NCBI GenBank assembly: GCA_021846285.1
Contig: JAJZCB010000025.1
Coordinates: 1-40,511 of the forward strand
Reading direction: 5' to 3'
DNA length: 40,511 nt
Source: Bacillota bacterium
GTDB lineage: Bacteria > Bacillota > Bacilli > Alicyclobacillales > SLC66
Position numbers and translations under genes: made by a program. Each line of letters opens with the position of its first letter. Position 1 is the stretch's first letter. Shown here piece by piece: positions 1-19,177 of the stretch. The notes below the pieces were generated by a model. That model was not told where the DNA came from and searched no databases. It worked only from the letters and a program-made list of their open reading frames with translations.

Positions 1-404
1 ACCGCATGGCCGTCCCGTTCGATCAAGAACACATTCTCGACGCGATACATCGCCGACCCGATATCGAGTATGCTTGGCGCGTGCTTGACGCCGCTTGTAT
101 AAAGCACCACCGTCCGCACTGACCGCAGAATCTGCTGGTGCAGCCGCGCGTCATACAGCAGGAATCGATGGAGCGTTTTTTCTTCTCTCGATTGAAACTC
201 GAGGTGCAGAATCGTATGGTCGGACATTTCAAGCACAAAGTCCAGAAAATCGGTTCGCAGATCCACGCTGTCCAGTTCCGTGGGAAGCGCCCGTTTCACC
301 TCAGCCTGTCGCGCGACGCCAAACGCAGTGAGCGCATGGTCGCCAAACGCCAGCGCAAGATGTTTGAGTACCAGGTCCTTGCTGTTACGCGGTATGATTG
401 CGAT
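1..404 (-). CDS. Rpn-family PD-(D/E)XK nuclease-like protein, 3' end cut by window
   Basis: The minus-strand translation from about 404 down to the window edge closely matches the N-terminal half of the Rpn-family protein encoded near 31528-32496, with shared stretches such as LHLEFQS, TLHRF, RTVVLY and LDIGSA. The family is a recombination-promoting nuclease/transposase-like group with a PD-(D/E)XK-type core; the D...ExQ signature is visible in LDFVLEMSDHTILHLEFQ. No ATG lies at the position where the homologue starts: the aligned codon is GCA, just after a GGAGGA ribosome site, with ATC codons on either side. Either an ATC start, a GTG start at 431 (which would overlap the promoter), or a lost start is possible. 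The C-terminus is outside the window. Confidence 0.7.
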   Translation of the reverse strand, partial: MAIIPRNSKDLVLKHLALAFGDHALTAFGVARQAEVKRALPTELDSVDLRTDFLDFVLEMSDHTILHLEFQSREEKTLHRFLLYDARLHQQILRSVRTVVLYTSGVKHAPSILDIGSAMYRVENVFLIERDGHA

Positions 405-419
405 TCCTCCGCTTCTCCC

Positions 420-448
420 ATTATACGCCACACCCGTCGCAGCGTACA
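420..448 (-). promoter_or_regulatory. Promoter of the Rpn-family gene
   Basis: On the minus strand a perfect TATAAT (425-420) is preceded by a 17-base spacer and TGTACG (448-443). The same TGTACG-17-TATAAT arrangement, with similar flanking bases, precedes the second Rpn-family gene at 32546-32518, so it is conserved between the two paralogues. The -35 is a poor match to TTGACA. Confidence 0.5.
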
Positions 449-1260: not shown

Positions 1261-1944
1261 TCACCGTGAGATCAGACCAGTGGGCAGATGAACGTGAATT
1301 ATAGTACGTTCGGATGGAAAAACCGACTCATTGAACAACCCATCGAATCTTGGCAGATCATCAGCGTAATGCAGATAAGCTGTGTGATAGAAATGCCGTA
1401 AAACAAAATCGATGAAGTGTAAAGGCGTTAATGGGGCTGTCACCGGAATACGACAATTCTGGTATTGTCCTAGTGTGAGGTGAGATTTCGGATGGTGAAG
1501 TTCGCAGAAAACCCCTTCTCGACTGTCAAAGTCGAAGCGAAGAGGAAACGGCACAATGTTCCTGGCGACAACCTCCGCGAATATCACGTCTTCCATGTAA
1601 ACTTCCGGGTTGCTCTGAAAATCATCTAAAAAGGGCGATGGAAAAAACGCCAGCCGATGCTGCTCCAACTCAAGCCCTTTAAACAGATAGGTCAACTGAA
1701 GTAATGCCCCATCCGGCATCAACACAGTGAACGCTCTCTCGGCGTACAGATCAGTGTAAATTCTGCTATATTCGCGATCCTTTAAAGCCAAAGATAAATA
1801 GTCGGCGCCAGCGAACGTCACCTCAGAGCGCCCATCTGGCAAGAGTCTGGGATAGCAGAAGTTCTGGTCACTGACCAATCCAATTCCCACAAGATGGGAA
1901 ATAATTGCATTAATCTGTCCTGCTAACTGCTTTGGTGTTGGCAT
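1261..1944 (-). CDS. DUF2290 domain protein, partner of the upstream helicase
   Basis: A 227-residue soluble protein that I recognise as the DUF2290 family from its conserved C-terminal half, which includes PKSHLTLGQYQNCRIPV, TPLHFIDFVLRHFY and a final HVHLP. No signal peptide or membrane segment is seen. The ATG at 1944 lies only 3 bases after the stop of the helicase gene, so the two are co-transcribed and probably translationally coupled. The function of DUF2290 is not known to me. The tight pairing with a UvrD-like helicase, next to nuclease genes and IS remnants, makes a role in DNA processing or phage defence a reasonable inference, but nothing in the protein itself shows catalysis. Confidence 0.75.
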   Translation of the reverse strand: MPTPKQLAGQINAIISHLVGIGLVSDQNFCYPRLLPDGRSEVTFAGADYLSLALKDREYSRIYTDLYAERAFTVLMPDGALLQLTYLFKGLELEQHRLAFFPSPFLDDFQSNPEVYMEDVIFAEVVARNIVPFPLRFDFDSREGVFCELHHPKSHLTLGQYQNCRIPVTAPLTPLHFIDFVLRHFYHTAYLHYADDLPRFDGLFNESVFPSERTIIHVHLPTGLISR

Positions 1945-1947
1945 AGC

Positions 1948-4116
1948 TTATTCCTTCCGTGGCAGGCGTGACTCAAGCTTCTTCACAAGCTCACCGTCCA
2001 AATCCTCAACGTGTAATCGCCCGGCATCAATGTCCGTAAGCAACTGAGCGAGCCCGCGCTGGTGAGTCTCGAGACGCTTCCTCTCTTCGTTGCTGATGTC
2101 GCGATGGACAATCTGCAATTGATCGCGCTGCGACCTCGTTGGGTAGCTGAATCGCAATTCGAAGTTCGCTTGTTTCGTGCTTTCGAATTCCCTGATCAAC
2201 TCCTGCATACCTTCACCCACCCCGACAACGCGTACCCATGCTTTGCTTCTTGTAATGGCCGTGAACAAACGATTACGGATGGTGGCCAGGTTTCTGGCAG
2301 AAGAATGACAATCCTGCGCGTTGATAATGTAAATCATACCGGCCTCATTTCCTTTGGCACGGTAAATTCCGGTGAAGGTAATAGAATCTGATTCTGTATT
2401 GAAAAAAACGTCGGGAGTGGTGTCAACTCCAGCAGTATGTGATTGAATTCCCATTTCTAAAAGCCTCTGACGAATCGGCCCAACTTCGCGTCTCGTCGTT
2501 AGCGGATCGGGATTTATTACCACGATGTCATCGTGCCGAAGTTCATCGTCCTTCAGGTTGTCAGCAATCGAACGAGCTACCCATTCCGCCTGCTGTTCAT
2601 ATGTTTCAAAGCGAACGAATTCCACCAGATCATCGATTGTGGAGTGATCTTCCAAAAAGATTGGACTCGTATCTTCTGTACGCCGTAACCAAACCTCTGC
2701 TCCTTCGCGCAGTTCGCCGCGAATTCGACGATAGCCAACATCCTCCCACAATTGAGGATAATCGAACATTTGCACCAATCCGGTAGCTCCCGGCTTTTGT
2801 GGCGCTCGATAAATACCGAAGCCGAGCGCATGGGCGGTCACCAGAACAGGTCGTGAATTTCGGTAGCACTTATTGAGGATAATGTCTTGTCTTTGACCTA
2901 AATCACCCTCACTGTCGAACTGAACCCTGGGTGCGCCGTCTGACTTCTTGCCAAAAATCTCTTGGACGGAAGGGAGTGATGAACCGGAGAGACTCTGCAA
3001 TTCATCATAAGCATACACAAGTCGCTTGGGTCCGGGTAAAGCCTCATAGCAAAGCCGCAGAAATACCGGGGGAAAGTCTTGCGCCTCATCGACGAGGACC
3101 GCATGGTAAAGCGGCTTTGCTTCGCGTACCTGCGACAGCGCTTTTTCACAAACACCGGAAAACTCTTGTCCGGAGCTAAACAGATTCCTGGCGGTTCGAA
3201 AATCGTAATACTCCACTTCATGGGCGCGACAAAACTCGTGGTAAATACCTTCTTTATCTCCACCCCCAGGCGCGCCCCATGCGTGGACAATCCGCAACAT
3301 ATCCCAATTGGGTTCCTCCCCCGTCTGTTCGACACAGAAGTTGTTAATCAAACGGCGGAATTGCCCTTTCAGAGAGCGAGTATTAAACGTGATTGCGATC
3401 CGCCAATCCGGGTGTTGGGCATGCAGATAAGCTGCTTTCAAAGCCAGTACGATAGTTTTCCCTGATCCGGCCAACCCACGGATACGTTGAACTCCATCAA
3501 CTGTCTCGAGCACTGCTTTACCTTGCATGGTGTCAAGAGTTGCTATTGAATCCTCAAGGCCCTTCAGCTTTGCGCCCCGCGAATTTTCTTTTGTAACGTT
3601 CCGCTTAGCCCGATTCGCACGGATTGTCGAAATGCTCTCTATCGCAGACAATGCCACTTCGAAGACCGTTTCGTCAGAGCCTCCCCAATCAAAGGAATCG
3701 AGCACATCGCCGAGGTTCTGAATGTTAGCAAGAGGATAATCCTCAATGTTGTAGTTGGAAACAGCATGAATTCCGGGAGCAAAACTTACGGATTTAATCG
3801 GAATACGAAGTTGACGCCTGTATGTGAGTTCTCGATAGGTCTTCAGGCGTGCTTCGAGCTTATTGGCGGTGTCATCTTGTCGAATATCGAAGGCGCCGGG
3901 TTCATGTCCCTCAATGAGATCGAAAGCCACAATCCCCTTTTGAGGAGAAACCCAAATTGCATCCACCGCGTAAGCTCCCTCGGGAGAATTGATGAGTGGA
4001 TACCCCAGCAGAAGTTGGCCATCCAGGCCATCTTGATTCGCAAAGAAATCAACCAGGGCCGTACTTGCCACTGGTTTGTTGTTCGTACCCCTGATAATAG
4101 AGACATTCGAGGCCAT
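1948..4116 (-). CDS. UvrD/Rep-like superfamily 1 DNA helicase with degenerate nuclease-like N-terminus
   Basis: About 722 residues. SF1A motifs in order: Walker A GLAGSGKT (near residue 214), Walker B LVDEAQDFPP, motif V TGIYRAKGNEA and motif VI LFTAITRSK. The N-terminal 180 residues include VDAIWVSPQKGIVAFDL, which resembles the core strand pair of NERD/PD-(D/E)XK nuclease domains but has FDL where the E-x-K would be, so catalysis there is doubtful. I chose ATG 4116 because AAGGTGA precedes it at good spacing; GTG 4134 is in frame but has no ribosome site. It is the first gene of an operon with the DUF2290 gene. The family translocates on single-stranded DNA using ATP; a defence or repair role is inferred from context. 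Confidence 0.85.
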   Translation of the reverse strand: MASNVSIIRGTNNKPVASTALVDFFANQDGLDGQLLLGYPLINSPEGAYAVDAIWVSPQKGIVAFDLIEGHEPGAFDIRQDDTANKLEARLKTYRELTYRRQLRIPIKSVSFAPGIHAVSNYNIEDYPLANIQNLGDVLDSFDWGGSDETVFEVALSAIESISTIRANRAKRNVTKENSRGAKLKGLEDSIATLDTMQGKAVLETVDGVQRIRGLAGSGKTIVLALKAAYLHAQHPDWRIAITFNTRSLKGQFRRLINNFCVEQTGEEPNWDMLRIVHAWGAPGGGDKEGIYHEFCRAHEVEYYDFRTARNLFSSGQEFSGVCEKALSQVREAKPLYHAVLVDEAQDFPPVFLRLCYEALPGPKRLVYAYDELQSLSGSSLPSVQEIFGKKSDGAPRVQFDSEGDLGQRQDIILNKCYRNSRPVLVTAHALGFGIYRAPQKPGATGLVQMFDYPQLWEDVGYRRIRGELREGAEVWLRRTEDTSPIFLEDHSTIDDLVEFVRFETYEQQAEWVARSIADNLKDDELRHDDIVVINPDPLTTRREVGPIRQRLLEMGIQSHTAGVDTTPDVFFNTESDSITFTGIYRAKGNEAGMIYIINAQDCHSSARNLATIRNRLFTAITRSKAWVRVVGVGEGMQELIREFESTKQANFELRFSYPTRSQRDQLQIVHRDISNEERKRLETHQRGLAQLLTDIDAGRLHVEDLDGELVKKLESRLPRKE

Positions 4117-4170
4117 AAAATCACCTTTTCTCACCTGATGAACTCCAGTGACGAATCTGAACTCTAATTG

Positions 4171-4199
4171 ATAATAACCCTTCGAACCATGTTTGTGAA
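4171..4199 (-). promoter_or_regulatory. Sigma-A type promoter of helicase-DUF2290 operon
   Basis: On the minus strand TTCACA (4199-4194) and TATTAT (4176-4171) are separated by exactly 17 bases, each matching the consensus at 5 of 6 positions. It lies about 55 bases upstream of the chosen helicase start and points toward it. Confidence 0.55.
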
Positions 4200-4223
4200 T
4201 CGTTCATCGGTCCGATTCACAAA
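4192..4223. promoter_or_regulatory. Inverted-repeat operator overlapping the -35 of the helicase operon
   Basis: TTTGTGAATC (4192-4201) and GATTCACAAA (4214-4223) form a perfect 10-bp inverted repeat with a 12-base spacer. A third half-site GATTCAC follows at 4228-4234. The left arm contains the -35 hexamer of the minus-strand promoter, the classic position for a repressor. No adjacent regulator gene is present, so the cognate factor is unknown. Confidence 0.55.
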
Positions 4224-4294
4224 GTTTGATTCACTTCTCTTATGCAATGCTTGCTCTTTAGCCCTGACCCAACTTTCGATTTTTCAGCACCATG

Positions 4295-5407
4295 TTAGCG
4301 GATAATCAGACTTTTTGACCCCCAAATCCTTGATAAATCAGGGGGTGTAGGTCGGAAATCGCAGATGTAGTGACCTAACCTATTGTCACTACGCAACGCC
4401 TCCTCACCACGAGCACGCTCCAGATCAGAAGCGACCATCATGTCCACCACTTCCGCCAATGAAGTCCTCGCGCTCCATCCCAGCACATTCATGGCCTTTG
4501 TGGGATCCCCGACAGGCAGATCCACTTCAGACGGCAGCAGGAAACGAGAATCAACTCTCACGTATTTCTCCCAGTCAAGTTCCACTCGCTCAAATGCCGC
4601 TTCTACAAACTCCCGTACCGTATGAGCCACACCCGCAGCGATCACATAGTCGTCCGGCTGGTCCTGCTGAAGCATGAGCCACATCCCTTCCACATAGTCA
4701 CGAGTGAATCCCCACTCGCGCCTGGCGTCGAGATTCCCAAGAACCAATTCGGTCTGCAGTCCACGTTTAATCCTTGCGGCGGCGCGAGTAATCTTACGAG
4801 CGACACACAAGTCTCCGCTTCGCGGTGAAACATGATCAAACAGAATGCCAGTTGCGACAAACAGGCCAGAATACTCCCGAGCGTCGACCGCCTGCCGGTG
4901 CGTATAAGCGTTCACAACCGCATAGGGGCTGCGCGGAGGAATGGACGGCGAAACATCTTGAACCGCATCCTTTGCTAGACCAGACATCTCATAAGAACCT
5001 GCTTGATAATACCGAACGTACCGTTCCGTCCTGTTTTGATAGTCATTAACTTCTTCGAGCAGTTTCATGGTGCCAAGCACCACTTCGTCCACGGTGTACT
5101 CCGGTTGAACAAACGCATCCAATCCATCTGAATTTGCAGCCAGATGATAGATCTCGACGGGTTGCACCAGTTCAAGAATCCTCCGAATACTGGAGGATTC
5201 GCATAAGTCTCCATAATGAATCGTCAAGTTCCGTTCGCCACCGTCTACACTCTTATATAAGTGCTCGACACTTTCGATGGTTAATCCAGAGTCTCTGCGA
5301 ATCATCCCGTGTACCGCATACCCTTTATCCAACAATAACTCGGATAGGTACAGGCCGTCTTGACCCGCAATGCCGATAATGAAGGCCGCTTTTTTCAATT
5401 CAATCAC
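4295..5407 (-). CDS. gmd: GDP-mannose 4,6-dehydratase-like protein lacking the catalytic lysine
   Basis: 370 residues with the fold signatures of GDP-mannose 4,6-dehydratase: a nucleotide-binding GIAGQDG near residue 12, HYGDL, EIYHLAA, QPEYT, PRSPYAV, GILFDHVSPR, KITRA, LGNLDARREWG and DYVEGMWLMLQQ. The YxxxK active-site motif reads YAVVN (Tyr162, Asn166), so the lysine is replaced. The S/T-x-E element is SYE (residues 138-140). Neighbouring positions normally invariant are also changed, for example AANSDGLDAF where AAQSHV.VSF is usual. The frame is fully open. It may be a decaying paralogue or a protein with a changed reaction. GTG 5407 or TTG 5398 could be the start; the latter gives the usual MKKA-type beginning. 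It lies apart from the main polysaccharide locus. Confidence 0.8.
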   Translation of the reverse strand: MIELKKAAFIIGIAGQDGLYLSELLLDKGYAVHGMIRRDSGLTIESVEHLYKSVDGGERNLTIHYGDLCESSSIRRILELVQPVEIYHLAANSDGLDAFVQPEYTVDEVVLGTMKLLEEVNDYQNRTERYVRYYQAGSYEMSGLAKDAVQDVSPSIPPRSPYAVVNAYTHRQAVDAREYSGLFVATGILFDHVSPRSGDLCVARKITRAAARIKRGLQTELVLGNLDARREWGFTRDYVEGMWLMLQQDQPDDYVIAAGVAHTVREFVEAAFERVELDWEKYVRVDSRFLLPSEVDLPVGDPTKAMNVLGWSARTSLAEVVDMMVASDLERARGEEALRSDNRLGHYICDFRPTPPDLSRIWGSKSLIIR

Positions 5408-5787
5408 ATCTCCAATTAAGTTTAATAGTATTCTCTAATGTAGAGTATATGAGATATCTAAGTGGCAATCAATCGAAATTTCACCGTATTGTAATTTTAA
5501 TAAATATATTCTATAGTATATTTATGAGTGCACTGTAATATTTTCCGCGAAAAATGGTTAGTCAAGAGTGAAGTTTTGGATCGCTAATCCCCTCCGGAAC
5601 TGACACTCCTATTACGCGGCGACAAACACACCATTCCCCCTTCGTACATCCTGAGCGCGTTTGATACGGCGTCTTGACAACAGTTAGCATGCTGTTGTGT
5701 TGTAAGCGTCAAACTCTAACCACCTCGCGCCTAATCGATCACGCGGTATCCTATCCTCAAGTCAGTCAGAGGAATGAGGCGGCCGTG
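5408..5787. other. AT-rich intergenic region with short inverted repeats
   Basis: No coding frame is convincing. AAATATA/TATATTT arms lie around 5503-5524 upstream of the dehydratase-like gene. ACAACAG (5677-5683) and CTGTTGT (5692-5698) form a 7-bp inverted repeat. The 11-mer CTTGACAACAG at 5673 recurs at 6080. Confidence 0.35.
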
Positions 5788-5925
5788 TCCAGGATCGAAC
5801 TGCGCATGAAGTGGGTGGAACGCATTCGAGAGTTCCAGACCAGCGGCCAGAGTGCGCGGTCTGGTGTGTCGCTCAGCAAGTCAGTGTACCTGCGCTATTG
5901 GATCCTTCGCTTTCACCATCAAATT
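5788..5925 (+). pseudogene. IS66-type accessory protein (TnpA-like) remnant
   Basis: The plus-strand frame reads KWVERIREFQTSGQSAR and then YLRYWILRFH. This is the pattern of the small helix-turn-helix accessory proteins of IS66-type elements (a W..RI..F..SGQS...WC......LRYW motif). The central WC segment is scrambled, apparently by small frame changes, and no IS66 TnpB or TnpC follows. It is a relic only. Confidence 0.4.
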
Positions 5926-6203
5926 CTTCCGTCCGATGTTGGACGGATGCCAATATTATTGGTCAGAACTAAGCCGACTCACGGTCCGGAAATCCCCGAG
6001 AGAAAAGGATCCTCATGTAGGGGTGCCAGACTTGCGTGATATCGTCAATTCCTATTTTATCGAATTATCGAAATGCGCACTTGACAACAGCGATGTGATT
6101 GATTCAGCATAGAATTCAAGGGACGTTGAAGTGTCTGAATTTCATCGATTGGTGTTCCGCCATGTTAAGCACAAGATCATGAGGATTGGTAAAGGGGGTG
6201 AAC

Positions 6204-7007
6204 ATGCCTGTGATCGCTGAGATTTACGGGAAACTCTCTCGGACCGGAAGTAATATGCACGATCGTTTGGAGGATCAGTTGACTGGTGACGTATTTGGCA
6301 GCTTGCGTTACGTACGTAGTCAACTGTGGTTTGAGAAGATCTTCTCCAAGACGAAATTCCTTGATGCTGACTCTCCCCTGCAAAAAAGAGCTCTCGAGAT
6401 CTGGCAACGAGCGATGCAGTCGCCTTTTTCTCTGGACATTAGGTTCTGGGAAAGACTTAGTGATCATGGCGAGATTGACCTGTTGATTGAGGGGCCGAAT
6501 CTTACAATAGGTTGCGAGATAAAGTACATAAGTGGTTTGTCGTCGGATGACAGCGTTGATAACCATATTCCAGATGAGGCTGCCATGGAGAGGGAGAAGC
6601 TAGAGTCGGTGAACCAACTTGCTCGCTATGGGCGATATCTGGGCAAAGATTCGAACAGTGTTCTCATACTCATTGCGCCGGCTGATTTAGGAACAGCAAT
6701 TGTTTTCGACGCACTCCAGCGAGGGATTATGAGGGCGCCACTTGGTTTATTGACTTGGCAAGCAGTCTATAAAGGAATTGTTGAAGTGCAATCAAACATC
6801 TCCAATCCGAATGAGGCAGTTCTGTTTGAAGACTTACGTCTATTATTAAGTCACCGAGGGTTGTCCACGTTCGAAGGATGGCCCATGCAGCACAGAGTGA
6901 GTCTTGATTACTATCAATATCCGCAGAATCTGTGCAATACAACCGTCACATTTCCATGGCCCGAACAAACTGTGTGGGGGAGTACACAATATGAATTCAA
7001 ACACTGA
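6204..7007 (+). CDS. PD-(D/E)XK-superfamily nuclease-like protein
   Basis: A 267-residue soluble protein. The N-terminal MHDRLEDQLTGDVFGSLRY supplies the early glutamate (E23), and GEIDLLIEGPNLTIGCEIKY gives D92...E105-x-K107, the standard PD-(D/E)XK active-site layout. A later glutamine/arginine helix (QLARYGRYL) fits the same fold. The ATG at 6204 is chosen because AAGGGGGTGA lies 2-3 bases ahead of it; in-frame TTG 6186 has no such site. It overlaps the next gene by 17 bases, so the two are translationally coupled. No methyltransferase is nearby, which argues against an ordinary restriction-modification pair. The DNA target and role are unknown; a defence function is inferred from fold and setting. 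Confidence 0.7.
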   Translation: MPVIAEIYGKLSRTGSNMHDRLEDQLTGDVFGSLRYVRSQLWFEKIFSKTKFLDADSPLQKRALEIWQRAMQSPFSLDIRFWERLSDHGEIDLLIEGPNLTIGCEIKYISGLSSDDSVDNHIPDEAAMEREKLESVNQLARYGRYLGKDSNSVLILIAPADLGTAIVFDALQRGIMRAPLGLLTWQAVYKGIVEVQSNISNPNEAVLFEDLRLLLSHRGLSTFEGWPMQHRVSLDYYQYPQNLCNTTVTFPWPEQTVWGSTQYEFKH

Positions 7008-7590
7008 GATTGGACAAAACATCAGTAACGCTTACAAGGTGATGTGTTCAACCTACGAGAGTGTTGACAAGCTACTCGTGGAGATTGATGCCATCGCTAT
7101 CCGGAGGGGGTTCACGCCGCTTACAAAAAGCTCTTTTCTTAGATGGCGTTCTGATAAGGAAGTTACCGGCTGGTTGATTGGGGATTTCATTAAACTATAT
7201 AAGAAACTGGCAAACTTCGATGAAGGTGATCTACTTCATGGTCCAGTTTATAGTATAGGCGTATCGCTGTGGGAAAAAGATGCACCCCCCCAAATTATCG
7301 TCGCGAAATTTCTTTACGACCTTAAAGAAACGCCCAAGAAACGTTCAGACGTAAAATCCCACCAGAGATTTAACTGGCCTGTAAGCAACGAGCAAAACTT
7401 CAAGATAGAAACGTTTAAGGAAAACTGGTTTTGCAGTACCCCTAAATCTGATAAAGTAAGAAAAAGTTTTTGGGGCCTTGATATGGTGCTATTTTCTAAA
7501 ATTCCGTTACTGGATGTCCAGAGTGCGGAGGACGCTGAAACGGTAATCTTTGCTTTACTTGAGGATCTTGTCAATTTGCCAGTCTCGTAG
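6991..7590 (+). CDS. Unrecognised protein paired with the PD-(D/E)XK nuclease
   Basis: A 199-residue soluble, charged protein with no signal peptide, membrane helix or motif that I recognise. The ATG at 6991 follows GGGGGAG with 8 bases between and starts inside the last codons of the nuclease gene. Features visible are an N-terminal helical stretch, a [14 protein letters not shown] segment, a basic middle ([16 protein letters not shown]) and an acidic C-terminal helix ([17 protein letters not shown]). The overlap with the nuclease gene suggests a direct functional partner such as a specificity, inhibitor or adaptor subunit; that is inference. Its base composition is AT-richer than the flanking polysaccharide and housekeeping genes, consistent with acquisition by transfer. 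Confidence 0.65.
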
Positions 7591-7770
7591 TAAAACCTGC
7601 GCGACTGACGACCTGTACTATGTCAACAGAGTAGACACGCGGAATCGAGATTTTTTGGCTGCCGTCTGTGGAATCTGCCCCTTGGATCAGTGTCATCGCC
7701 GCGAGTCGCCTGTCAAGGCAAACAACATACCTTGACAGGCTTGACCTCAGATCGCCTACGGCAGCTCCTG

Positions 7771-8050
7771 CTAAGGATACTGTTTCTCCATCGCGACCGG
7801 TGTTATGTAGCCAATGAGCGAGTGATTCCGTTGCCGATTGCACCAGACCTCGATATGTACCCAAAAATCTCTTTGTACGCCTGCTCGCGCGTCGCGTACT
7901 TTCTTCTGTGGTTGTCAACTCTCGCTTGATCACACTGTGGAAGGATTCGATGCAAGCGTTGTCGTAACAGTTGCCTTTGCGGCTCATGCTCCCCTTCATC
8001 CCGTACGTTTGTAGGCGCTCTGTCGGAACGCAGGTGATTCCTATGCGTCA
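7771..8050 (-). pseudogene. IS3-family (IS150-type) transposase OrfB, frameshifted C-terminal remnant
   Basis: The minus strand encodes, in three successive frames, [20 protein letters not shown] and HSVIKREL, then [15 protein letters not shown], then [20 protein letters not shown] ending in EKQYP and a TAG at 7771. Together they are the C-terminal end of the IS3-type DDE integrase domain, including the last catalytic glutamate region (NACIESFHS). Two frameshifts and loss of the N-terminal part make it non-functional. It lies directly downstream of the nuclease pair. Confidence 0.8.
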
Positions 8051-8188
8051 AATAGCCCCACCTGTCATTCTCGGTGGACGCTTTGACGCATACGCTTATT
8101 GATAACGTAGGCGATCGCGGCCACCTTAACCCATGGAGTCTGTCTGAATGTAGGCGGGCTCCTTTCCCGTCATTTTCGCAAAAATGAG

Positions 8189-8284
8189 TCATGAATTCCA
8201 GGTGACAATGTCAGTGGGAAAAACGCCGACAGACAATGCAAGCAGCAACACCGCCGTGTCTTTTGCTTTTTGATGGTCTTTCAT
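8189..8284 (-). pseudogene. Truncated transposase start following DUF6431 gene
   Basis: A 31-codon frame beginning MKDHQKAKDTAVLLL, with AGGAGGTGG ahead of the ATG at 8284, immediately downstream of the DUF6431 gene. It stops abruptly at 8189. A strong ribosome site before such a short frame suggests the 5' end of a longer gene, plausibly the transposase of the same element, cut by a deletion. The transposase assignment is inferred from position and a vaguely familiar MKD-QKA-start; confidence is low. Confidence 0.3.
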
Positions 8285-8296
8285 GCCATCCACCTC

Positions 8297-8818
8297 CTAT
8301 AGGAGAGAATCTGGCATGAATCTACCGCCGATCTTCGTGGACATCCACGCCGAACGGGTTGTGATATACAAATGAGCGTTGACGATGGGTCGGACCGCTC
8401 TGGCCAGCCATCCGCCAGCACTGCCAAGTGCAGATTGTGCCGGGCAGGACGAAGCCTCGACACACAGGGGGAATCGTTGCCGCAAGGCCTCCAGACATCC
8501 ACAGGCATACGGGGCCCACCACGCAAACCACGAGCGCCAGCGGTTCAGGGTCGACTCGTCGGCCGACACACTGGAGGACTCTCGATTCTTGGTGACCTGC
8601 TCGATGCTTGACGCTTCATGACGTTTATAGGGCACCAGCACATCCGGGAGTTCGTGATGGATCTTGTTACAGTCGACACAATGCAGACGCCGGATGAGCA
8701 ACCACTGCTTCTCGCCCGATTCGAGGATCTGACTACGCCGCCTTCGATCGAACAACTCCAGCACGCCCTGACAACAAGGGCAAGGCAAGCATTCTGCACT
8801 CCTGACCAAAAACCCCAT
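8297..8818 (-). CDS. DUF6431 domain protein, mobile-element associated
   Basis: 173 residues. The N-terminal zinc-binding motif PCPCC with LHCVDCNKIHH, then ELPDVLVPYKRHEASSIEQV, matches what I know as DUF6431, a family often sitting inside or next to insertion elements in Bacillota. Two cysteine pairs (CPCC and CVDC) probably bind zinc. A later WLARAVRPIVNAHLYI segment is also typical. The ATG at 8818 is the first of the open frame. It is followed 12 bases later by the truncated 31-codon frame, suggesting a two-gene element that has lost its transposase. Function unknown; it may be a helper or regulator of transposition. Confidence 0.6.
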   Translation of the reverse strand: MGFLVRSAECLPCPCCQGVLELFDRRRRSQILESGEKQWLLIRRLHCVDCNKIHHELPDVLVPYKRHEASSIEQVTKNRESSSVSADESTLNRWRSWFAWWAPYACGCLEALRQRFPLCVEASSCPAQSALGSAGGWLARAVRPIVNAHLYITTRSAWMSTKIGGRFMPDSLL

Positions 8819-8878
8819 CTATATCCGTTCCAAGTAGCTCATACTGTGTTATAATCACCATACGAGTGTTTGTGTGAG

Positions 8879-8930
8879 AGACCCCTGCGATGACGATGCC
8901 ACGTCATGGCAACAAGGGGTCTTTCTTTAC
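8879..8930 (+). terminator. Rho-independent terminator-like hairpin
   Basis: AGACCCCT (8879-8886) pairs with AGGGGTCT (8915-8922), and an inner ATGACG/CGTCAT stem (8890-8895 with 8902-8907) extends it. A T-rich tract TTCTTT follows. On the plus strand it ends any transcript reading rightward; a TATAAT-like sequence at 8850-8855 lies just upstream, so it may form the end of a short leader within the mobile element. Confidence 0.5.
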
Positions 8931-9069
8931 CTCCGTTAAGGACATTCTATCCGACAACTTCTGGACAGGCAATTCCGTCAGCAGCTGGCCACTGTGCGGC
9001 AGCAGAAAGAGAGGTGGGTCAATTTCGTCCGGCTAAAAGGGTCAGGATGAATCCGGCCTTGAACACCAT

Positions 9070-10692
9070 CTATGTTCGCTTCCGATACGCGCGGACCATG
9101 CGGTGAACAACGCCGCAAAACAGGTCCCGAAGAAAGCGGCTGACCATATTGCCTCTCGCAATAGATACATAGAGCAGCAATGTCGCTGTGCCCAATGTCC
9201 CGCCGTAAAGACCGCGCAGCAGACCCGCGAGTGAGCTCATCGCGTATCCATGCTCCGGCGCGGTTAGGGCCGCGAGAGCGGCGCCTACAGCGAATGCCAG
9301 ACCAGGTGCAAGTCCACGCCTGAACACCTCGATCAAAAAGACGCGTGCCGACCAGTGCAGTCGCCTCAACATGATCCGTGTTTGAAGCAGCACATAGACC
9401 GCTTGTGACAGCGCGTTCGCAAGGACGAGCCCCACGATGCCCAGCGGACCAACGAGCGATAGGCTTCCGACGATATTCACGGCAACCGCGAGAAGAGACG
9501 AACGCATTACAAACGCATTTTCCTTCCGCGCGAAAAAGAAGTGCGTGACAAGCGGGGAGGCCAAGTAAAAAACGCCAAACCATCCATAGATGAGCAGTGG
9601 GGACTGAGTGATCCTCACATCAGCAGCGGTAAAGGCACCACGATGATAGAGCGCTGCCACAAGGTCAGGGGCGTAAATGACGAACCCGCTCATGACGATC
9701 AGTCCAACAAAGATAAGCCATCCGAATCCCTCGCTTGTAATGCGCCGAAGCTGCGTCTCATCCTCTTCCAGTGTATGCGTGACAAAGCGCGTGTAAAGAA
9801 CGGTAGCAATCGCGACGCCGATCAAACCATTCGGAAGCATACCAATCTTCGAGGCATAGTTCATATCGCTCAAGTGACCAATGTTCAACCCCGAAGCGAG
9901 GATCCGGTCAACGATCAGGTTGAGAGACCCAACCCCGACGCTCGCGAAGATGGGCCCCATGGAACGCATCATACTTCTCAGGGCAGGATGCCAAAGGCCG
10001 TCCGGAGCACCGAGTCGGTTATGTGCAACGAGCGGAATAAACTGCACCAAGAAACGACCAATCGTTCCCGCCAGAAAACCATAGGCGAGGGCTTCGATGC
10101 CAACCCACGGGTGCAATAGTAGCGCGACGGTCAGGAGCAGGATATTGTAGATGATACCCACCATTGATGGATAATAGAAGTTCTCGTGCGCATTGTGTAT
10201 CCCCCACAGCACACCAGAGAGGCCTGAAAACAGGACGGCAACCATCATTATCCGCAGAAGGCGAACGGCCTCGGCATGCTCGACGAGCGAGAATCGGGGC
10301 GCTAGAAGCGACACAAGGACGCCCTTTGTGAGCAGACCGAGGGCAGTCATGACAGCAAGTGCAAGGGATGTATTCCAGAAGACAGCGCCCACTAGCCGTT
10401 TTGCCGAAATCGGGGAAACATGCAACTCCTCCTTGAGCACTGGTATTAAAGCGTTTGTCAATGAATAAGATATCCATCCTGCGACCATGTCCGGAACGAT
10501 GGCCGCAACATAGAACGCATCCGTATAGCCTGTGGCGCCGTACGCATACGCAATATATGACTCGCGTCCAAATCCTAGAGCAACACTGAACGCCGTCAAC
10601 ATAGCGACAAGTATGGCGGATCTCCGCGATGAACGAGTACCCACACACAACCAACTTTCTGATGGACCGACAAAGTAGGCATGTACTGACAA
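9070..10692 (-). CDS. MOP-superfamily flippase (MurJ/Wzx type) of the polysaccharide locus
   Basis: Up to 540 residues with about 14 hydrophobic segments and a MurJ/MviN-like start of the domain (LGFGRESYIAYAYGATGYTDAFYVA). The family moves lipid-linked sugars across the cytoplasmic membrane. At the end of the exopolysaccharide gene row it is best read as the exporter of the undecaprenyl-linked repeat unit, but a lipid II flippase role cannot be excluded from sequence. The start is uncertain: TTG 10692 has AGGA close by, and an in-frame GTG about 50 bases later also gives a complete first membrane segment. A GT2 remnant lies between this gene and the next glycosyltransferase upstream. Confidence 0.8.
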   Translation of the reverse strand: MSVHAYFVGPSESWLCVGTRSSRRSAILVAMLTAFSVALGFGRESYIAYAYGATGYTDAFYVAAIVPDMVAGWISYSLTNALIPVLKEELHVSPISAKRLVGAVFWNTSLALAVMTALGLLTKGVLVSLLAPRFSLVEHAEAVRLLRIMMVAVLFSGLSGVLWGIHNAHENFYYPSMVGIIYNILLLTVALLLHPWVGIEALAYGFLAGTIGRFLVQFIPLVAHNRLGAPDGLWHPALRSMMRSMGPIFASVGVGSLNLIVDRILASGLNIGHLSDMNYASKIGMLPNGLIGVAIATVLYTRFVTHTLEEDETQLRRITSEGFGWLIFVGLIVMSGFVIYAPDLVAALYHRGAFTAADVRITQSPLLIYGWFGVFYLASPLVTHFFFARKENAFVMRSSLLAVAVNIVGSLSLVGPLGIVGLVLANALSQAVYVLLQTRIMLRRLHWSARVFLIEVFRRGLAPGLAFAVGAALAALTAPEHGYAMSSLAGLLRGLYGGTLGTATLLLYVSIARGNMVSRFLRDLFCGVVHRMVRAYRKRT

Positions 10693-10807
10693 ATCCTATG
10701 ATGTACCCAACGTGGCCGTCAGGTGAGAGTGTCCTGTTTCATCAATCATTTAGAGCTTTCTTGCAGTTGGCGCAGGGTCTTCGCTCGGCACGAGCCTCAT
10801 ACCGTGT

Positions 10808-10970
10808 TCACCCAACCCACTCGCGTGTTCCGTCCGTAGAAGCGTCATCTATCACAATCCACCCAAAATGCTTACAGAAATGGTTAATCATAGAACTCCA
10901 ACACCTCTTCATGGTAGAAGCACTGTTGTAGGTGGGAGTAATGATCGACAATACATTTTTCTTGGTTCAT
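10808..10970 (-). pseudogene. GT2-family glycosyltransferase, N-terminal remnant
   Basis: The minus strand reads VLSIITPTYNSAS, then MKRCWSSMINHF, then IVIDDASTDGTREWVG before a stop at 10808. This is the unmistakable start of a family 2 glycosyltransferase (nucleotide-binding TPTYN and the D-D/AS-DGT motif). The DNA just ahead reads MNQEK in a frame shifted by one base, so the start is also broken, and the rest of the gene is missing. It lies in line between a GT4 gene and the flippase, as an intact glycosyltransferase would. Confidence 0.75.
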
Positions 10971-11076
10971 AGATAACACCATCCAAATCTTAGTCATCCA
11001 CGATTGCACTCACAAGTCAGCAGTAATGACGTTTTGAGGGGTAATAAATTTGTTGGTAAGCCGTGGACTGGCTATG

Positions 11077-12213
11077 TCACATCAATCCGAGAACCTTAAT
11101 CATTTTTTCTACATAGTGCTTGGCACCAAAAAGCTGATTCACGATTCCGTTTATTTCTTCCCTATCGTTAAACTGGTGAGGACTAATTGCAAACTTCTGA
11201 ATCATACTGCCCGCAGACATGTAGTCCCTGTCAGGGAATGAAAATACTAATCCCGGAAGTCTTGCACTAGTCATTTCGAAAATATCCTTGAGTCCCCCAA
11301 CCTCACTGAGCAAAAGTGGACAACCACAACTTAGGGCTTCAATCGCAGAAATCGACGTAGCTTCTTCAACGCCTGCAATGTGAGTAGATGGTACCATACA
11401 AATATCGGCCGCGTTGAGTAGACTAGGTATTTGCTCATGCTTGGCTTCACCAAGAAACATCACTACATCCTGTAGCCCAAGTTCGTTAACAAGCGCAAGC
11501 AACCCACTTCGTAGTGGCCCATTACCGACAACTACCATCTTAAATTGCCCGTTCACGCATGACATGGCCCTAATAGCATATTCGACGCCATTTTTCAGAA
11601 CCAAGCGTCTCGGGACGAGTATGAGTGTCTCTGAATCGACGCCAAGCGCTTCACGCATCCGAGCACGTTCGTTGCTGTTAGGGGAAAATATCTTTGTATT
11701 TACGAAATTGGCCATAACCGTTATTTCGGACCGCTTGCTAATGCTCCGGATATACCCTTCGATCCTCTTATCCACAGAAATAATAGAAAGGGCACCCGCA
11801 TAGGCGGTGATTTCTGCTTTCCTCATGGCACGTTCGTCTCGAGAGTGAGCACGAACCTTCCCGTCAGAAATAGCCTCATCAGTCAGATACCCATGAACTA
11901 CTAAATGATACGGAAGCCCGCATTCTAGACAAGCATTTGCAGAGAGCACATCATTGGCGATTACGACTACGTCTTTAGGTGTTTTTTTCAGTACTCTTTT
12001 AAGAGAGGCAATTCTAGCTTCATAAAACCTACTCGTGTTTCGCACTGAGTACAGTCTCTCTGCATACTTTCGAAGGATGTGAATCTGATCTGAACACACG
12101 ATACTTGCTCCTATGCCTACTTCTCGATTAAGTGCCGACAAGAGACCCATCAGATAAGAACTCACTCCGCCTATAAGACCTACACTTTGCGATGAAACCA
12201 GCAATACCTTCAT
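11077..12213 (-). CDS. GT4-family glycosyltransferase
   Basis: 378 residues from the chosen ATG. The N-terminal domain begins MKVLLVSSQSVGLIGGVSSY (a glycine-rich acceptor-side loop); the C-terminal domain has VPRRLVLKNGVEYAI, VVGNGPLRSGL, VMFLGEAKHEQIPSLLNAAD and the E-x7-E donor motif in GVEEATSISAIEALSCGCPL. This is the GT-B fold of family 4 retaining glycosyltransferases, which act on the cytoplasmic face. ATG 12213 is preferred over the longer frame because GGGGG lies 7 bases ahead and family members start with MKVL. The donor and acceptor sugars cannot be read from the sequence. Its AT content is higher than the kinase genes of the same locus, typical of polysaccharide-specific genes. 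Confidence 0.85.
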   Translation of the reverse strand: MKVLLVSSQSVGLIGGVSSYLMGLLSALNREVGIGASIVCSDQIHILRKYAERLYSVRNTSRFYEARIASLKRVLKKTPKDVVVIANDVLSANACLECGLPYHLVVHGYLTDEAISDGKVRAHSRDERAMRKAEITAYAGALSIISVDKRIEGYIRSISKRSEITVMANFVNTKIFSPNSNERARMREALGVDSETLILVPRRLVLKNGVEYAIRAMSCVNGQFKMVVVGNGPLRSGLLALVNELGLQDVVMFLGEAKHEQIPSLLNAADICMVPSTHIAGVEEATSISAIEALSCGCPLLLSEVGGLKDIFEMTSARLPGLVFSFPDRDYMSAGSMIQKFAISPHQFNDREEINGIVNQLFGAKHYVEKMIKVLGLM

Positions 12214-12453
12214 TTCCATTCCCCCGAATGCGAAAATAGGTGTTAGAACACCTTGTCCAGAAACACGCTTTTCACGGTGTAGAAATCTCACTGGGAGTTC
12301 GTTCGACGAAAGGTCATATTGACTCTGTTAGTTTCCTGGATCAGGAGACTTGACGCTGAGCCCAGATATTTTCCGCGTGAGCTGAGATCATTTCCCCCGA
12401 TTTTCCGCCTCATTTCTCCTCTTTATGCCGCCTTTCTCGGTTTGTGGGCAGAC
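12214..12453. other. Intergenic stretch with possible IS-end sequence
   Basis: Around 12355-12415 two similar segments, each starting TGA and ending ATTTTCCGC, occur near each other. This resembles the multiple short terminal repeats of some insertion sequences, but no transposase is present. No gene is supported. Confidence 0.25.
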
Positions 12454-12636
12454 CTATTCCGTCGACATATTGTGTCGGGTTTGGGATACAGTTCCATTGA
12501 TCTTTGGAGAAAGCACCATAACCCGCTCAGTTGTACCCAATGCCCCGACAACGGAGTTTATCAATTGATCTAAATGTTGACTCATTCCTCGTTGACTTGT
12601 CAAGGATAGCATGTACCCGTCGATGAGAATTAGCAA
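12454..12636 (-). pseudogene. Glycosyltransferase N-terminal remnant (GT4-like)
   Basis: About 60 codons on the minus strand: a short beta strand LLILIDGYML, an SQRGMSQHLDQLINSV helix and RVMVLSP. The order strand, glycine loop, helix, strand is that of the first Rossmann unit of GT4 enzymes whose N-termini read -ILIDG-. The frame ends at 12454 and nothing homologous continues. It lies between two intact GT4 genes, so it is best seen as the stub of a lost glycosyltransferase gene. The assignment rests on a short match. Confidence 0.45.
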
Positions 12637-12745
12637 AGGACTATCCCACCCACCTTAATTGTTATTTTGATAGACTAGCCAACACTGTCATTCTTACCAT
12701 CGTAAAGGATACTCAAACAATTTTTAGGAAACCGCAAAGCCCACT

Positions 12746-13861
12746 CTAAACCCACAGCGCGTCGTAGGTCTGTCGCACTCGTTCCATCACCTGCGTGTAA
12801 TGGTAGAAAGAGTTCGCCCTGCTGCGATTTTCTTTCCCTAAGCGCGTTAAGTCTTCCAAGGTAAGATTTAAAAAGACTTGACCCAGTGCCCCTACATCAC
12901 CTGGGTCAACAAGTACACTCTCGTCGACCATGTTTATTACGGCGCCTACCCTTGAAGCGACCACTGCCATACCCGCAAACATGGCCTCGAGGATGACCAG
13001 AGGCATTCCCTCTGAATAAGAGGGTAAGCAGAGAACGTCGCACTCTGCGAAAAGTTCACGCTTTCTCTCGCCGATGACCGTGCCGCAAAAATGCACTTGG
13101 CTCCTGATCTGTCCAGTCTCGATCAGACGCTCAGCCCTGAAAAATCCATCGTTTAGATCAATGCCCGGAACGGCTATATTCCTCTCAGATACAATCACTT
13201 CTCCGGCACAGTACAGTTCGAAATTGCATATTTCCTTAATGAGCACCAGTGCCTGTATAAGGTCCAGGAACCCTTTGGCAACTGACAGATGTCCAACGAA
13301 GAGAATTTTAAGTGGCTGTGAACAATGCCTCTCTACACCCGCAAACTGACCAATCCACTCGGAACTCACGGTGTTGGGAACGACAAGAATCTTATCAGGG
13401 AACATAAATCCAAACTGGGGTACAATGCGGTCGTCGAGCACAATTAGACGATCGACGCGGCCCAATACCAGCCTTACTATCCACGCAAAACGACATCGCG
13501 AAAGAAATTTGTCAAATTGCCCCCCATGGAAATGTGCAATAACCTTGTAGCGGAGGAGCAGCGCAATGGTCATGAGAACTATGTCTCGAAGCACACCTGT
13601 AGAGTTCTGTGCAAGAGGTATATGTGCAATCTGTGCACAGTGTCTCTTTTTCAAGGCAACGTACGTGAATCTAATGACTTGTACGGTTGCCCTGAGGACA
13701 TTGGCGGCACTCAGAGCACCTTTACTGGCGTTAGACCGGTTGCTTGTGGAAACGTGGAAATATGTTATTCCATAGTCCCTTCCCAGCCTCATGAAATTTT
13801 GGGTTACAACCTCAGGGCCTGAATAGGGAGGTGGAATCGGTCCGACAAGAAGTACCCCCAT
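12746..13861 (-). CDS. GT4-family glycosyltransferase
   Basis: 371 residues from ATG 13861. The N-terminus MGVLLVGPIPPPYSGPEVVTQ is the acceptor-domain start common in bacterial GT4 enzymes. LKILFVGHLSVAKGFLDLIQA opens the donor domain, and EGMPLVILEAMFAGMAVVAS carries the E-x7-E motif. The ATG lies about 20 bases after the stop of the polymerase gene, so the two are in one operon; the frame extends further upstream but would overlap that gene deeply. It should add one sugar to the lipid-linked repeat unit on the cytoplasmic face. The specificity cannot be deduced. Confidence 0.85.
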   Translation of the reverse strand: MGVLLVGPIPPPYSGPEVVTQNFMRLGRDYGITYFHVSTSNRSNASKGALSAANVLRATVQVIRFTYVALKKRHCAQIAHIPLAQNSTGVLRDIVLMTIALLLRYKVIAHFHGGQFDKFLSRCRFAWIVRLVLGRVDRLIVLDDRIVPQFGFMFPDKILVVPNTVSSEWIGQFAGVERHCSQPLKILFVGHLSVAKGFLDLIQALVLIKEICNFELYCAGEVIVSERNIAVPGIDLNDGFFRAERLIETGQIRSQVHFCGTVIGERKRELFAECDVLCLPSYSEGMPLVILEAMFAGMAVVASRVGAVINMVDESVLVDPGDVGALGQVFLNLTLEDLTRLGKENRSRANSFYHYTQVMERVRQTYDALWV

Positions 13862-13880
13862 CTCTGTAGTTCCCACCCGC

Positions 13881-15254
13881 TCATTGTGCACCGTGGCTAC
13901 CACCTTCCAAAACGAACGCCCTGTAAAAGAATGCAAAGCCAAGCATGGACCACATAACGGCAGACATGTATGGCCCCTCCAGAACCACCTCAACACCGAT
14001 TACGACAAACCAGATGGACATGCAGCCAATGAGCACCAAGGATATCGGATCACGGCCCACTCCCGCCAACGATCGTCGCAGGGCCATCCCACCAATGGCC
14101 AAGAAGGGAACGATCGGCCAAATCCCATACCACTGAAGCACCTGCAAGTACGAATTAGAAAGCGCAACGGTATTCAATGCATATCCCTTGGATGCATTCC
14201 ACCCACCGTACCCGAGTTCAATTAACCTCACAGGCAGCCAAGGCTGACCAACTCGAATGTTAAAGGGGGCCTGTACGAACTGACCCCAAGCTGATCCCCA
14301 TATAATGAGGCGCCAGCGATTGTTGGCAACCTGAACGTAACTACCGGCCAGCTTAAACACACTTAAGAAATTCTCGGAAACCTTCGCGAAGAAAGCAGGG
14401 TCCGTCAACATTAACATCCCACACGAGAGAAGGACAAATGCAGTGAGAGTTCCTATACGTCGGCCGACATAATGCGTCTGCCCCCCGCTTACAGCCGCAA
14501 GCGCAATGAAAGCTAGGACTATGCCGATCCACGGACCTCTGGCACCGGGAAGAACAATGGCCACAAGTAGTAGCCCCGTGGTGACAAAATCCACGATATT
14601 CCTTTTTTTCTCCCATTTCCATGCCATTTGAAAGACGAGAAGCATTCCGGCAATCGACTCGGATGCAGCTGGGATTTGTATCGCGCCGGTTAGAATGTAT
14701 GTTATTGGAACAAGGATGCCGAAGACCCTGAGGCCGACTTCCAAATGACGCCTAGTAACGTATTGGCCCATAATTCGAAACACGGAATAGGATACGGGTA
14801 TAAACCAGATATAATAGATCTCGGCCGAGTCTCTGAGCACAGGTAACAAACCGAATTGCGGTGCATTCAGGATTAATCCAAGACCGAGAATGAGGAATAG
14901 GAGGAAGATCCATAAGCCGACTCTCTTCGGCATCACGAACCTTCTTGAGAGTAGTAATAGGACCGTTAGACTAAGCAGGCTAGACTCTGTAACATAAAAT
15001 GGAGGTTTCGGAAGTGCAATATAAGCAAAGCTTCTGGTGAAAAGAATTATCCCGCACATATACGCTAGATAGATGTACATGGTTAATCTCTCAATTGAAT
15101 CGACGCTCACAATAATGAACAAAAGTGCTGCGCAGGCAAGAACCACATAAATCGGCACAAGCGTTCCAGCAACGGACTCCACGCCCAGAAATATACCGAC
15201 GGCGATCGCCAAGGTTGTACGAGTAACCCTTCTCACAGAAACGCTCTCACTCAC
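13881..15254 (-). CDS. Wzy-like polysaccharide polymerase / O-antigen ligase family membrane protein
   Basis: 457 residues with at least ten hydrophobic segments and a central extracytoplasmic loop; LPGARGPWIGIVLAF resembles the conserved arginine-containing segment of Wzy_C/O-antigen ligase proteins. In Wzy-dependent pathways such a protein joins repeat units outside the membrane. It is the only candidate polymerase in the locus, and the CpsC/CpsD pair present would control its chain length. The GTG start at 15254 follows AAGGGGG by about 10 bases. Sequence divergence in this family is high, so the call rests on topology, that motif and context. Confidence 0.75.
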   Translation of the reverse strand: MSESVSVRRVTRTTLAIAVGIFLGVESVAGTLVPIYVVLACAALLFIIVSVDSIERLTMYIYLAYMCGIILFTRSFAYIALPKPPFYVTESSLLSLTVLLLLSRRFVMPKRVGLWIFLLFLILGLGLILNAPQFGLLPVLRDSAEIYYIWFIPVSYSVFRIMGQYVTRRHLEVGLRVFGILVPITYILTGAIQIPAASESIAGMLLVFQMAWKWEKKRNIVDFVTTGLLLVAIVLPGARGPWIGIVLAFIALAAVSGGQTHYVGRRIGTLTAFVLLSCGMLMLTDPAFFAKVSENFLSVFKLAGSYVQVANNRWRLIIWGSAWGQFVQAPFNIRVGQPWLPVRLIELGYGGWNASKGYALNTVALSNSYLQVLQWYGIWPIVPFLAIGGMALRRSLAGVGRDPISLVLIGCMSIWFVVIGVEVVLEGPYMSAVMWSMLGFAFFYRAFVLEGGSHGAQ

Positions 15255-15398
15255 TTAGTCGCAACCCCCTTCAGCGAAAAGTAGTAGAAACCGACTTGCC
15301 TCACGCCTTAAAGTGCAAATGGGTAGCTAAATGAGTGTCCATGCACTAGGCTGGACACTCTCCGTATCCTTTCCTTGCAGACACAAAGAGCCCATACA

Positions 15399-16325: not shown

Positions 16326-16329
16326 CGCA

Positions 16330-17085
16330 TCAAGCCCCCTCGTTGTTTCGTTTCCACCAAGTCTGCGCGAGCGTCCGTGACAACTCTAGGACAAATGCCG
16401 TATTCGTAACGGCATACCTCGGACCTAGTCTCCTAGGCTCGTTTAATAGCCTATAGATCCATTCGGCAGAGAGACGACGCATCCACTGTGGCGCCCGCTT
16501 CTTTCTACCCTCGAGTATGTCGAAGCCGCCGCCGATGCCTATAGCGAGTGAAGCTTGGCTAAGGGAAAGGTAATCAATACACCATCTCTGCTCTCTAGGT
16601 GTTCCCATTCCAAGCAACAGGACCTGCGCACGGGAAGTAAGAACATCCGCAAGCACCGACGATTCCCTCCCGGCAATGTAACCGTCACTACACCCAACGA
16701 CTCTCACACCAGGGTACCGTGACTCGAGCCCAATCGCAGCTCGTTCGGCTACTCCGGCCAAACCGCCCAAAAGAAATACACGCGGCTGATAGTCCTGCAA
16801 CCTAAGCATGACCCCGTGGAACAAATCCATGGCCGGGATATGATGGACTGGCCGTTTACCCAGTATACGGGATGCCAAGGCAATCGGTTTCCCGTCAGCA
16901 CTGACGAATGGAGCCTTGCGAAAGAACGACAACGTCTCATCAGACTTCCTGCACGCGTACCAGTTTGCCACATTTATGGAGGTGTACCAAGTCGGTGTGC
17001 GGCTTTCGAATGCGCAAACCATGCAATCTATCAACGACGCCATGCTGAGATCATCAATGGGGCACCCCATGACTTCCGTTCGCAT
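16330..17085 (-). CDS. WecG/TagA/CpsF-family glycosyltransferase (GT26)
   Basis: About 251 residues. Family landmarks are SINVANWYAC near the N-terminus, SADGKPIA with the conserved aspartate, VFLLGG, GMGTPREQRW, GIGGGFDILEGRKKRAPQWM and EWIYRLLNEPRR, the C-terminal segment that contacts the membrane-bound acceptor. Members transfer N-acetylmannosamine, ManNAcA or other sugars to the first undecaprenyl-diphospho-sugar. Here it would add the second residue after the phosphoglycosyltransferase product. The ATG at 17085 has AAGGCGGTGA 5 bases ahead; GTG 17094 is in frame but sits on that ribosome site. Confidence 0.88.
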   Translation of the reverse strand: MRTEVMGCPIDDLSMASLIDCMVCAFESRTPTWYTSINVANWYACRKSDETLSFFRKAPFVSADGKPIALASRILGKRPVHHIPAMDLFHGVMLRLQDYQPRVFLLGGLAGVAERAAIGLESRYPGVRVVGCSDGYIAGRESSVLADVLTSRAQVLLLGMGTPREQRWCIDYLSLSQASLAIGIGGGFDILEGRKKRAPQWMRRLSAEWIYRLLNEPRRLGPRYAVTNTAFVLELSRTLAQTWWKRNNEGA

Positions 17086-18040: not shown

Positions 18041-18045
18041 CCGGA

Positions 18046-19176: not shown

Positions 19177-19177
19177 A

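What the first reader, a model, noticed from the sequence alone, without database searches (positions are those of the whole stretch)
1261..4234. Candidate two-gene defence-like module: UvrD-like helicase plus DUF2290
The helicase and DUF2290 genes are separated by 3 bases, have their own promoter and lie in a zone of nucleases and IS relics. SF1 helicases paired with small proteins of unknown function are common in phage-defence systems, but I do not know this pair as a described one.
Basis: partly seen in the sequence, partly recalled or inferred. Interest (0 to 1): 0.6.

Follow-up and report, generated by a model that had tools for sequence, protein, structure and literature searches.

The report
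Known helicase–DUF2290 phage-defence gene pair
Two adjacent bacterial genes, a helicase and a small protein called DUF2290, form an already described anti-phage defence system; this is a well-preserved new copy of it, and how it stops phages is still unknown.

Summary
The two genes are real and intact: DUF2290 at 1261-1944(-), and an SF1 helicase at 1948-4134(-), whose likelier start is the ATG at 4116. They lie 3 bases apart. The pair is not new. Both proteins match the system-specific PADLOC profiles strongly (helicase 1029 bits, DUF2290 297 bits). The system is 'Helicase+DUF2290' of Rousset et al. 2022, found in P4-like satellites and inhibiting phage T7. PAO1 PA1372/PA1371, a helicase locus behind a plasmid fitness cost, has been assigned to the same system.

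Related loci confirm a mobile defence unit. The helicase lies directly upstream in 73 of 80 genome loci fetched with DUF2290 alone, across about 19 phyla. Of the 7 exceptions, 2 are contig edges, 4 are truncated copies and 1 is intact. The two protein families co-evolve (r = 0.85). Type I restriction genes are common neighbours; none showed among 124 control ORFs.

The mechanism is unproven. I favour a helicase sensor with DUF2290 as effector, because six polar residues of DUF2290 are invariant in 78 sequences. A TumE-toxin relationship for DUF2290 is suggestive but not significant. The helicase's closest solved folds are human Schlafens and UvrD. The 'own promoter' is at chance level.

The parts
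1948..4134 (-). SF1 helicase of the Helicase-DUF2290 system; likely start ATG at 4116 (722 aa), GTG at 4134 also possible
   Evidence: PADLOC PDLC03002, 1029 bits over 11-724; SF1 motifs invariant in 68 homologues; AF2 model, mean pLDDT 86
3633..4104 (-). N-terminal domain of the helicase (about residues 11-167): alpha/beta order resembling a restriction-endonuclease fold but without a (D/E)xK motif
   Evidence: secondary structure of the AF2 model; conservation; the fold assignment is an inference
1261..1944 (-). DUF2290 protein, 227 aa, proposed effector; invariant D78, R136, D138, H151, H155, R165
   Evidence: PF10053, 158.7 bits; PADLOC PDLC02999, 297.5 bits; invariance in 78 sequences; AF2 model, pLDDT 88
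4122..4127 (-). AGGTGA, Shine-Dalgarno-like sequence just before the ATG at 4116
   Evidence: read directly
4171..4199 (-). sigma-70-like promoter match TTCACA-17-TATTAT, 10 of 12; not above chance

Best explanation
This is a member of the described two-gene Helicase-DUF2290 anti-phage/anti-plasmid system (membership about 0.96). Proposed mechanism, inferred (about 0.45): the SF1 ATPase with its N-terminal domain patrols DNA and senses abnormal replication or recombination intermediates made by invading phages or plasmids. It then releases or activates DUF2290, an enzyme (most likely a nuclease), which stops the element or the cell. Shown here: both genes, their coupling, co-evolution, motif conservation and the family's defence neighbourhood. 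Shown by others: T7 inhibition by a relative, and a plasmid fitness cost that depends on a helicase (PA1372) which others assign to this system. Inferred: the physical complex, what is sensed, that DUF2290 is catalytic, and its substrate.
For: Membership: PADLOC profiles, 1029 and 297 bits. The pair in an E. coli P4-like satellite (psu - helicase - DUF2290 - integrase - tRNA-Leu) is 46% and 37% identical to the window's proteins. Order and spacing are conserved in 73/80 genome, 7/7 plasmid and 2/2 viral loci, and in 4/4 genomes found with Pfam alone. Distance matrices of the two proteins correlate at r = 0.85 (largest of 1000 permutations 0.13). Nearest neighbours include HsdS in 8/65 and HsdR in 5/59, with neither among the PADLOC families shown for 124 control ORFs; one plasmid copy sits inside a BREX operon. 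Mechanism: all SF1 motifs are invariant; six polar residues of DUF2290 are invariant in 78 sequences, as expected of an active site; the helicase's N-terminal domain keeps no (D/E)xK, so the helicase itself is an unlikely nuclease. A PAO1 plasmid activates SOS, and loss of PA1372 silences it (PMC4410645); PMC11637435 says prediction tools assign PA1372/PA1371 to this system. Precedent: in Hachiman a DUF protein proved to be the effector nuclease and the helicase the sensor (PMC12278908).
Against: DUF2290 has no known nuclease motif and no significant fold match. Invariant residues could instead bind the helicase or nucleic acid. [quoted passage not shown] No complex was modelled. The copy here has no tested phenotype and lies beside a polysaccharide cluster, not in a clear defence island.
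Confidence: 0.55

Rival explanations
1. Same system, but the helicase is the effector: it disrupts phage or plasmid replication complexes directly, and DUF2290 is an accessory recruiter, inhibitor or DNA-binding partner without enzymatic activity.
For: In PAO1 the compensatory mutations fall in the helicase gene and change the expression of the plasmid rep gene. DUF2290 has no recognised catalytic motif or fold.
Against: Six polar invariant residues (D78, R136, D138, H151, H155, R165) in 78 divergent sequences look more like an active site than a binding surface. DUF2290 is retained with the helicase nearly everywhere.
Confidence: 0.3
2. Toxin-antitoxin-like arrangement: DUF2290 is a translation-inhibiting RNase distantly related to TumE (DUF6516), and the helicase is its DNA-sensing gatekeeper, a split analogue of the human Schlafen plan (ssDNA-binding helicase plus tRNase).
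For: The AF2 model of DUF2290 gives two main helices and about seven strands, as described for TumE (PMC10584680), with a similar motif order: DG turn, RxD strand, H..H strand, C-terminal helix. hhalign E was 0.043 to 0.072 in that register. By Foldseek E-value the helicase's best solved match is human SLFN11 (4e-17).
Against: The profile similarity is within the tail of column-shuffled controls (score 17.9 against a top of 27.1 in 100), and the register changed with the alignment used. By Z-score UvrD and SLFN11 are near-tied (27.7 and 26.6). The Schlafen core domain is absent.
Confidence: 0.12
3. A DNA-repair or housekeeping pair unrelated to defence.
For: UvrD/Rep-type helicase core.
Against: Rare and patchy: 4 of 299 genomes of the phylum. 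Scattered over phyla in the tree. Neighbours include restriction-modification, BREX, PARIS, MADS and phage-integrase genes. Published T7 inhibition.
Confidence: 0.03

Closest known systems
Helicase+DUF2290 (Rst_HelicaseDUF2290 in DefenseFinder; PADLOC DUF2290/Helicase models), Rousset et al. 2022, PMC9122126
   Same: Both proteins, their order, tight coupling, full-length profile matches; 46% and 37% identity to an E. coli P4-satellite copy
   Different: No tested activity here; lies beside a polysaccharide cluster rather than in a phage satellite
PA1372/PA1371 of Pseudomonas aeruginosa PAO1 (PMC4410645, PMC4208098, PMC11637435)
   Same: Helicase with UvrD-like C-terminal domain next to PA1371; prediction tools assign the pair to this system
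   Different: Sequences not compared here; known by plasmid cost, not phage defence
Hachiman HamAB (PMC12278908)
   Same: Two-gene helicase plus former DUF protein; sensor/effector logic as proposed
   Different: HamA carries a D-ExK nuclease motif; HamB belongs to a different helicase family (Ski2-like); no sequence relation found
Gabija GajAB
   Same: UvrD-like helicase in a two-gene system; weak helicase-core similarity (best 20.6 bits)
   Different: No GajA partner here
Human Schlafen SLFN11/SLFN14
   Same: Helicase core among the closest solved folds; SLFN11 binds ssDNA and acts at stalled forks
   Different: No Schlafen core nuclease domain; SLFN11 is a single chain and neither binds nor hydrolyses ATP
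TumE (DUF6516) toxins
   Same: Similar order of strands and motifs to DUF2290
   Different: Half the length; sequence similarity not significant

Membership tests
Helicase-DUF2290 system | helicase matches the system's own helicase profile over its length | tested here: met
   PDLC03002, E = 0, 1029 bits, residues 11-724 on profile 2-704 of 707
Helicase-DUF2290 system | partner is a DUF2290 protein | tested here: met
   PDLC02999, 297.5 bits, 1-221 of 222; PF10053, 158.7 bits
Helicase-DUF2290 system | adjacent, same strand, helicase first | tested here: met
   3-base gap; same arrangement in 73/80 genome loci
Helicase-DUF2290 system | intact SF1 motifs and reading frames | tested here: met
Helicase-DUF2290 system | located in a mobile element or defence island | tested here: inconclusive
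   met for the family; in this window only an IS3 fragment and two unproven nuclease-like ORFs
Helicase-DUF2290 system | protects against phage (T7 in the published case) | not testable with these tools
   needs a phage challenge
Hachiman | HamA/HamB profile matches | tested here: not met
   no HamA or HamB among PADLOC matches at E <= 0.1
Gabija | GajA partner next to GajB | tested here: not met
   GajB models match the helicase only weakly (E 3.6e-5 at best); the partner is DUF2290
Schlafen | Schlafen core (AlbA_2) nuclease domain | tested here: not met
   not among Pfam matches of either protein at E <= 0.1
TumE/DUF6516 toxin superfamily | significant profile-profile similarity of DUF2290 to TumE | tested here: inconclusive
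   hhalign E 0.043-0.23; real score inside the tail of shuffled controls
PD-(D/E)XK nucleases (helicase N-terminal domain) | D plus (D/E)xK catalytic motif | tested here: not met
   D58 is invariant in 68 close relatives, but the third-strand Lys is absent, and D58 and E75 are lost in distant members

The most novel reading that the evidence does not exclude
DUF2290 is a remote member of the TumE-type translation-inhibiting toxin superfamily, held by a Schlafen-like SF1 helicase that senses DNA replication intermediates: a prokaryotic split counterpart of the Schlafen plan, in which DNA sensing triggers an RNase.
Probability: 0.1. Interest if true: 0.65.

Novelty: new member of a known kind. 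Interest (0 to 1): 0.22.

Why it matters
The system is described but I found no mechanism for it in the papers held. This copy adds an intact, divergent member. The family alignment gives a short list of residues whose mutation would test whether DUF2290 is the effector: D78, R136, D138, H151, H155 and R165. The literature also links this phage-defence system to the PA1372 plasmid-cost locus. For this window taken alone the finding is ordinary.

Tried and rejected
TumE homology of DUF2290: profile comparisons with three alignments, plus reversed and column-shuffled controls, gave no significance and an unstable register; kept as a lead only. PDB, PDB/VIA and viral fold searches with the DUF2290 model returned no significant match; the absence proves nothing about novelty of fold. 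No PDB sequence relative of DUF2290 or of TumE was found. Own promoter/terminator: chance level. Repeats around the pair are short and probably chance. Phage records hold no relative of either protein at E 1e-5. Sampled relatives of the host genome gave only short helicase-core matches at 30-47% identity, so the pair itself looks absent there. The first search for related loci attempts failed because the alignment was too divergent. Housekeeping repair was rejected on distribution and neighbours.

Full report
WHAT IS THERE. The two ORFs exist as described. DUF2290 occupies 1261-1944 and the helicase 1948-4134, both on the minus strand, with 3 bases between them. The helicase probably starts at the ATG at 4116, which has AGGTGA just upstream and agrees with the starts of homologues. 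Pfam finds DUF2290 (158.7 bits) and UvrD_C_2 (32.5 bits) above their cut-offs. The 'own promoter' is a 10/12 match that is not above the shuffled expectation.

IDENTITY. PADLOC holds system-specific models for this pair. The helicase scores 1029 bits over its whole length and DUF2290 297 bits. The pair was described by Rousset et al. 2022 (PMC9122126) as an ATP-dependent helicase with a DUF2290 protein, one of two systems from P4-like satellites that specifically inhibit T7; they also report it in prophage hotspots of Vibrionaceae and Bacillus. The Hachiman paper lists it as 'Rst Helicase+DUF2290' among DefenseFinder systems. The E. coli strain VTB97420v carries a copy exactly in a P4-like context (psu, helicase, DUF2290, integrase, tRNA-Leu), 46% and 37% identical to the window's proteins. 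PA1372/PA1371 of PAO1, known because PA1372 mutations relieve the cost of plasmid pNUK73 (PMC4208098, PMC4410645), is assigned to the same system by prediction tools according to PMC11637435; I did not compare those sequences myself.

CO-OCCURRENCE. Loci were fetched with DUF2290 only, so the helicase was not selected for. It lies directly upstream on the same strand in 73 of 80 genome loci; in a few of these (for example L084, L098) its reading frame is broken. Of the seven exceptions, two are at contig edges (L053, L063) and four carry a shortened DUF2290 (L038, L044, L100, L104), two of these (L038, L104) with recombinase- or transposase-like ORFs upstream by eye. One (L083) is an intact DUF2290 beside a Mg-chelatase-like gene, where related cyanobacterial loci (L076, L079, L082) have the full pair. 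All seven plasmid loci and both viral contigs have the pair. An independent Pfam search of 299 genomes of the phylum found DUF2290 in four, each with the helicase upstream. Gaps between the genes are short and are often 4-base overlaps.

CO-EVOLUTION AND MOBILITY. Pairwise distances of the two proteins over 68 loci correlate at 0.85, against a maximum of 0.13 in 1000 permutations. The permutation keeps no shared ancestry, so this shows joint inheritance rather than direct contact. The helicase tree scatters phyla: 29 label changes against a least possible 18. The window's copy groups with Robbsia (Burkholderiaceae), near Actinomycetota and Thermodesulfobacteriota copies. With the rarity, this fits horizontal spread.

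NEIGHBOURHOOD. The nearest upstream ORF is a type I specificity subunit in 8 of 65 loci, and the nearest downstream ORF a type I restriction subunit in 5 of 59, with MADS, BREX PglX, PARIS AriA, pAgo and Hhe matches besides. Among 124 ORFs of 20 arbitrary 12-kb control stretches the PADLOC families shown include neither HsdS nor HsdR models. The control comes from one phylum and only the 25 commonest families are listed, so it is a rough baseline. One plasmid copy lies within a BREX operon and another beside type I RM genes. In the window itself the setting is less clear: polysaccharide genes, an IS3 fragment, and two nuclease-like ORFs recognised by eye.

ANATOMY. In the helicase, the Q motif, Walker A and B, and motifs III to VI are invariant in 68 close and 7 divergent members at nearly every residue checked. 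The AF2 model (pLDDT 86) matches UvrD (Z 27.7, rmsd 3.2, 370 aligned) and SLFN11 (Z 26.6, rmsd 3.1, 324 aligned), which are close to tied by Z; by Foldseek E-value SLFN11 ranks first. The N-terminal ~165 residues show an alpha-beta-beta-beta-alpha-beta order that suggests a restriction-endonuclease-like fold, but no (D/E)xK motif is kept, and D58 and E75 are lost in distant members; this is an inference from secondary structure and conservation. DUF2290 (pLDDT 88) has two main helices and about seven strands, with D78, R136, D138, H151, H155 and R165 invariant in 78 sequences. It has no significant fold match.

MECHANISM. The best reading is a helicase sensor with DUF2290 as effector. The strongest points are the invariant polar residues of DUF2290, the lack of a nuclease motif in the helicase, the replication-linked plasmid phenotype (SOS induction that disappears when PA1372 is lost), and the Hachiman precedent. 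Nothing here shows an interaction, an enzyme activity or a trigger. The main rival is that the helicase does the work and DUF2290 assists.

TUME LEAD. The order of conserved motifs in DUF2290 resembles TumE toxins, whose described fold is also two helices on seven strands (PMC10584680). Profile comparisons gave E 0.043 to 0.23 with changing registers, and column-shuffled controls scored as high. It is not established.

VERDICT. A new, intact member of a described defence system; ordinary as a discovery, with an open mechanism.

Noticed in passing
6186-7007(+) and about 6985-7590(+): A second two-gene unit: a PD-(D/E)XK-like protein (GEIDLLIEG..GCEIKY, read by eye) followed by an unknown protein, with no Pfam, NCBIfam or PADLOC match. 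Both are conserved, in order and overlapping, on a Niallia plasmid (L169; 33% identity, and 27% with E 2e-20) next to HNH and GIY-YIG genes. It may be an undescribed defence pair.
   Followed up: partly
3-431(-): ORF cut by the contig start that reads like an Rpn-family (recombination-promoting) nuclease, with a LHLEFQS motif; recognised by eye, not searched.
   Followed up: no
7571-7999(-): IS3-family transposase fragment.
   Followed up: no
8297-8818(-): DUF6431 protein (103 bits) in the same relic zone.
   Followed up: no
4295-20224(-): Surface polysaccharide cluster: GDP-mannose dehydratase family, MurJ-like flippase, glycosyltransferases, epimerases.
   Followed up: no
L083:7890-8654: Intact DUF2290 without a helicase in Crocosphaera, while related cyanobacterial loci L076, L079 and L082 keep the pair; possibly a natural case of helicase loss.
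   Followed up: partly
G000:C35:12227-12448: The host genome carries one TumE-family (PF20126) gene elsewhere, 35.7 bits.
   Followed up: no
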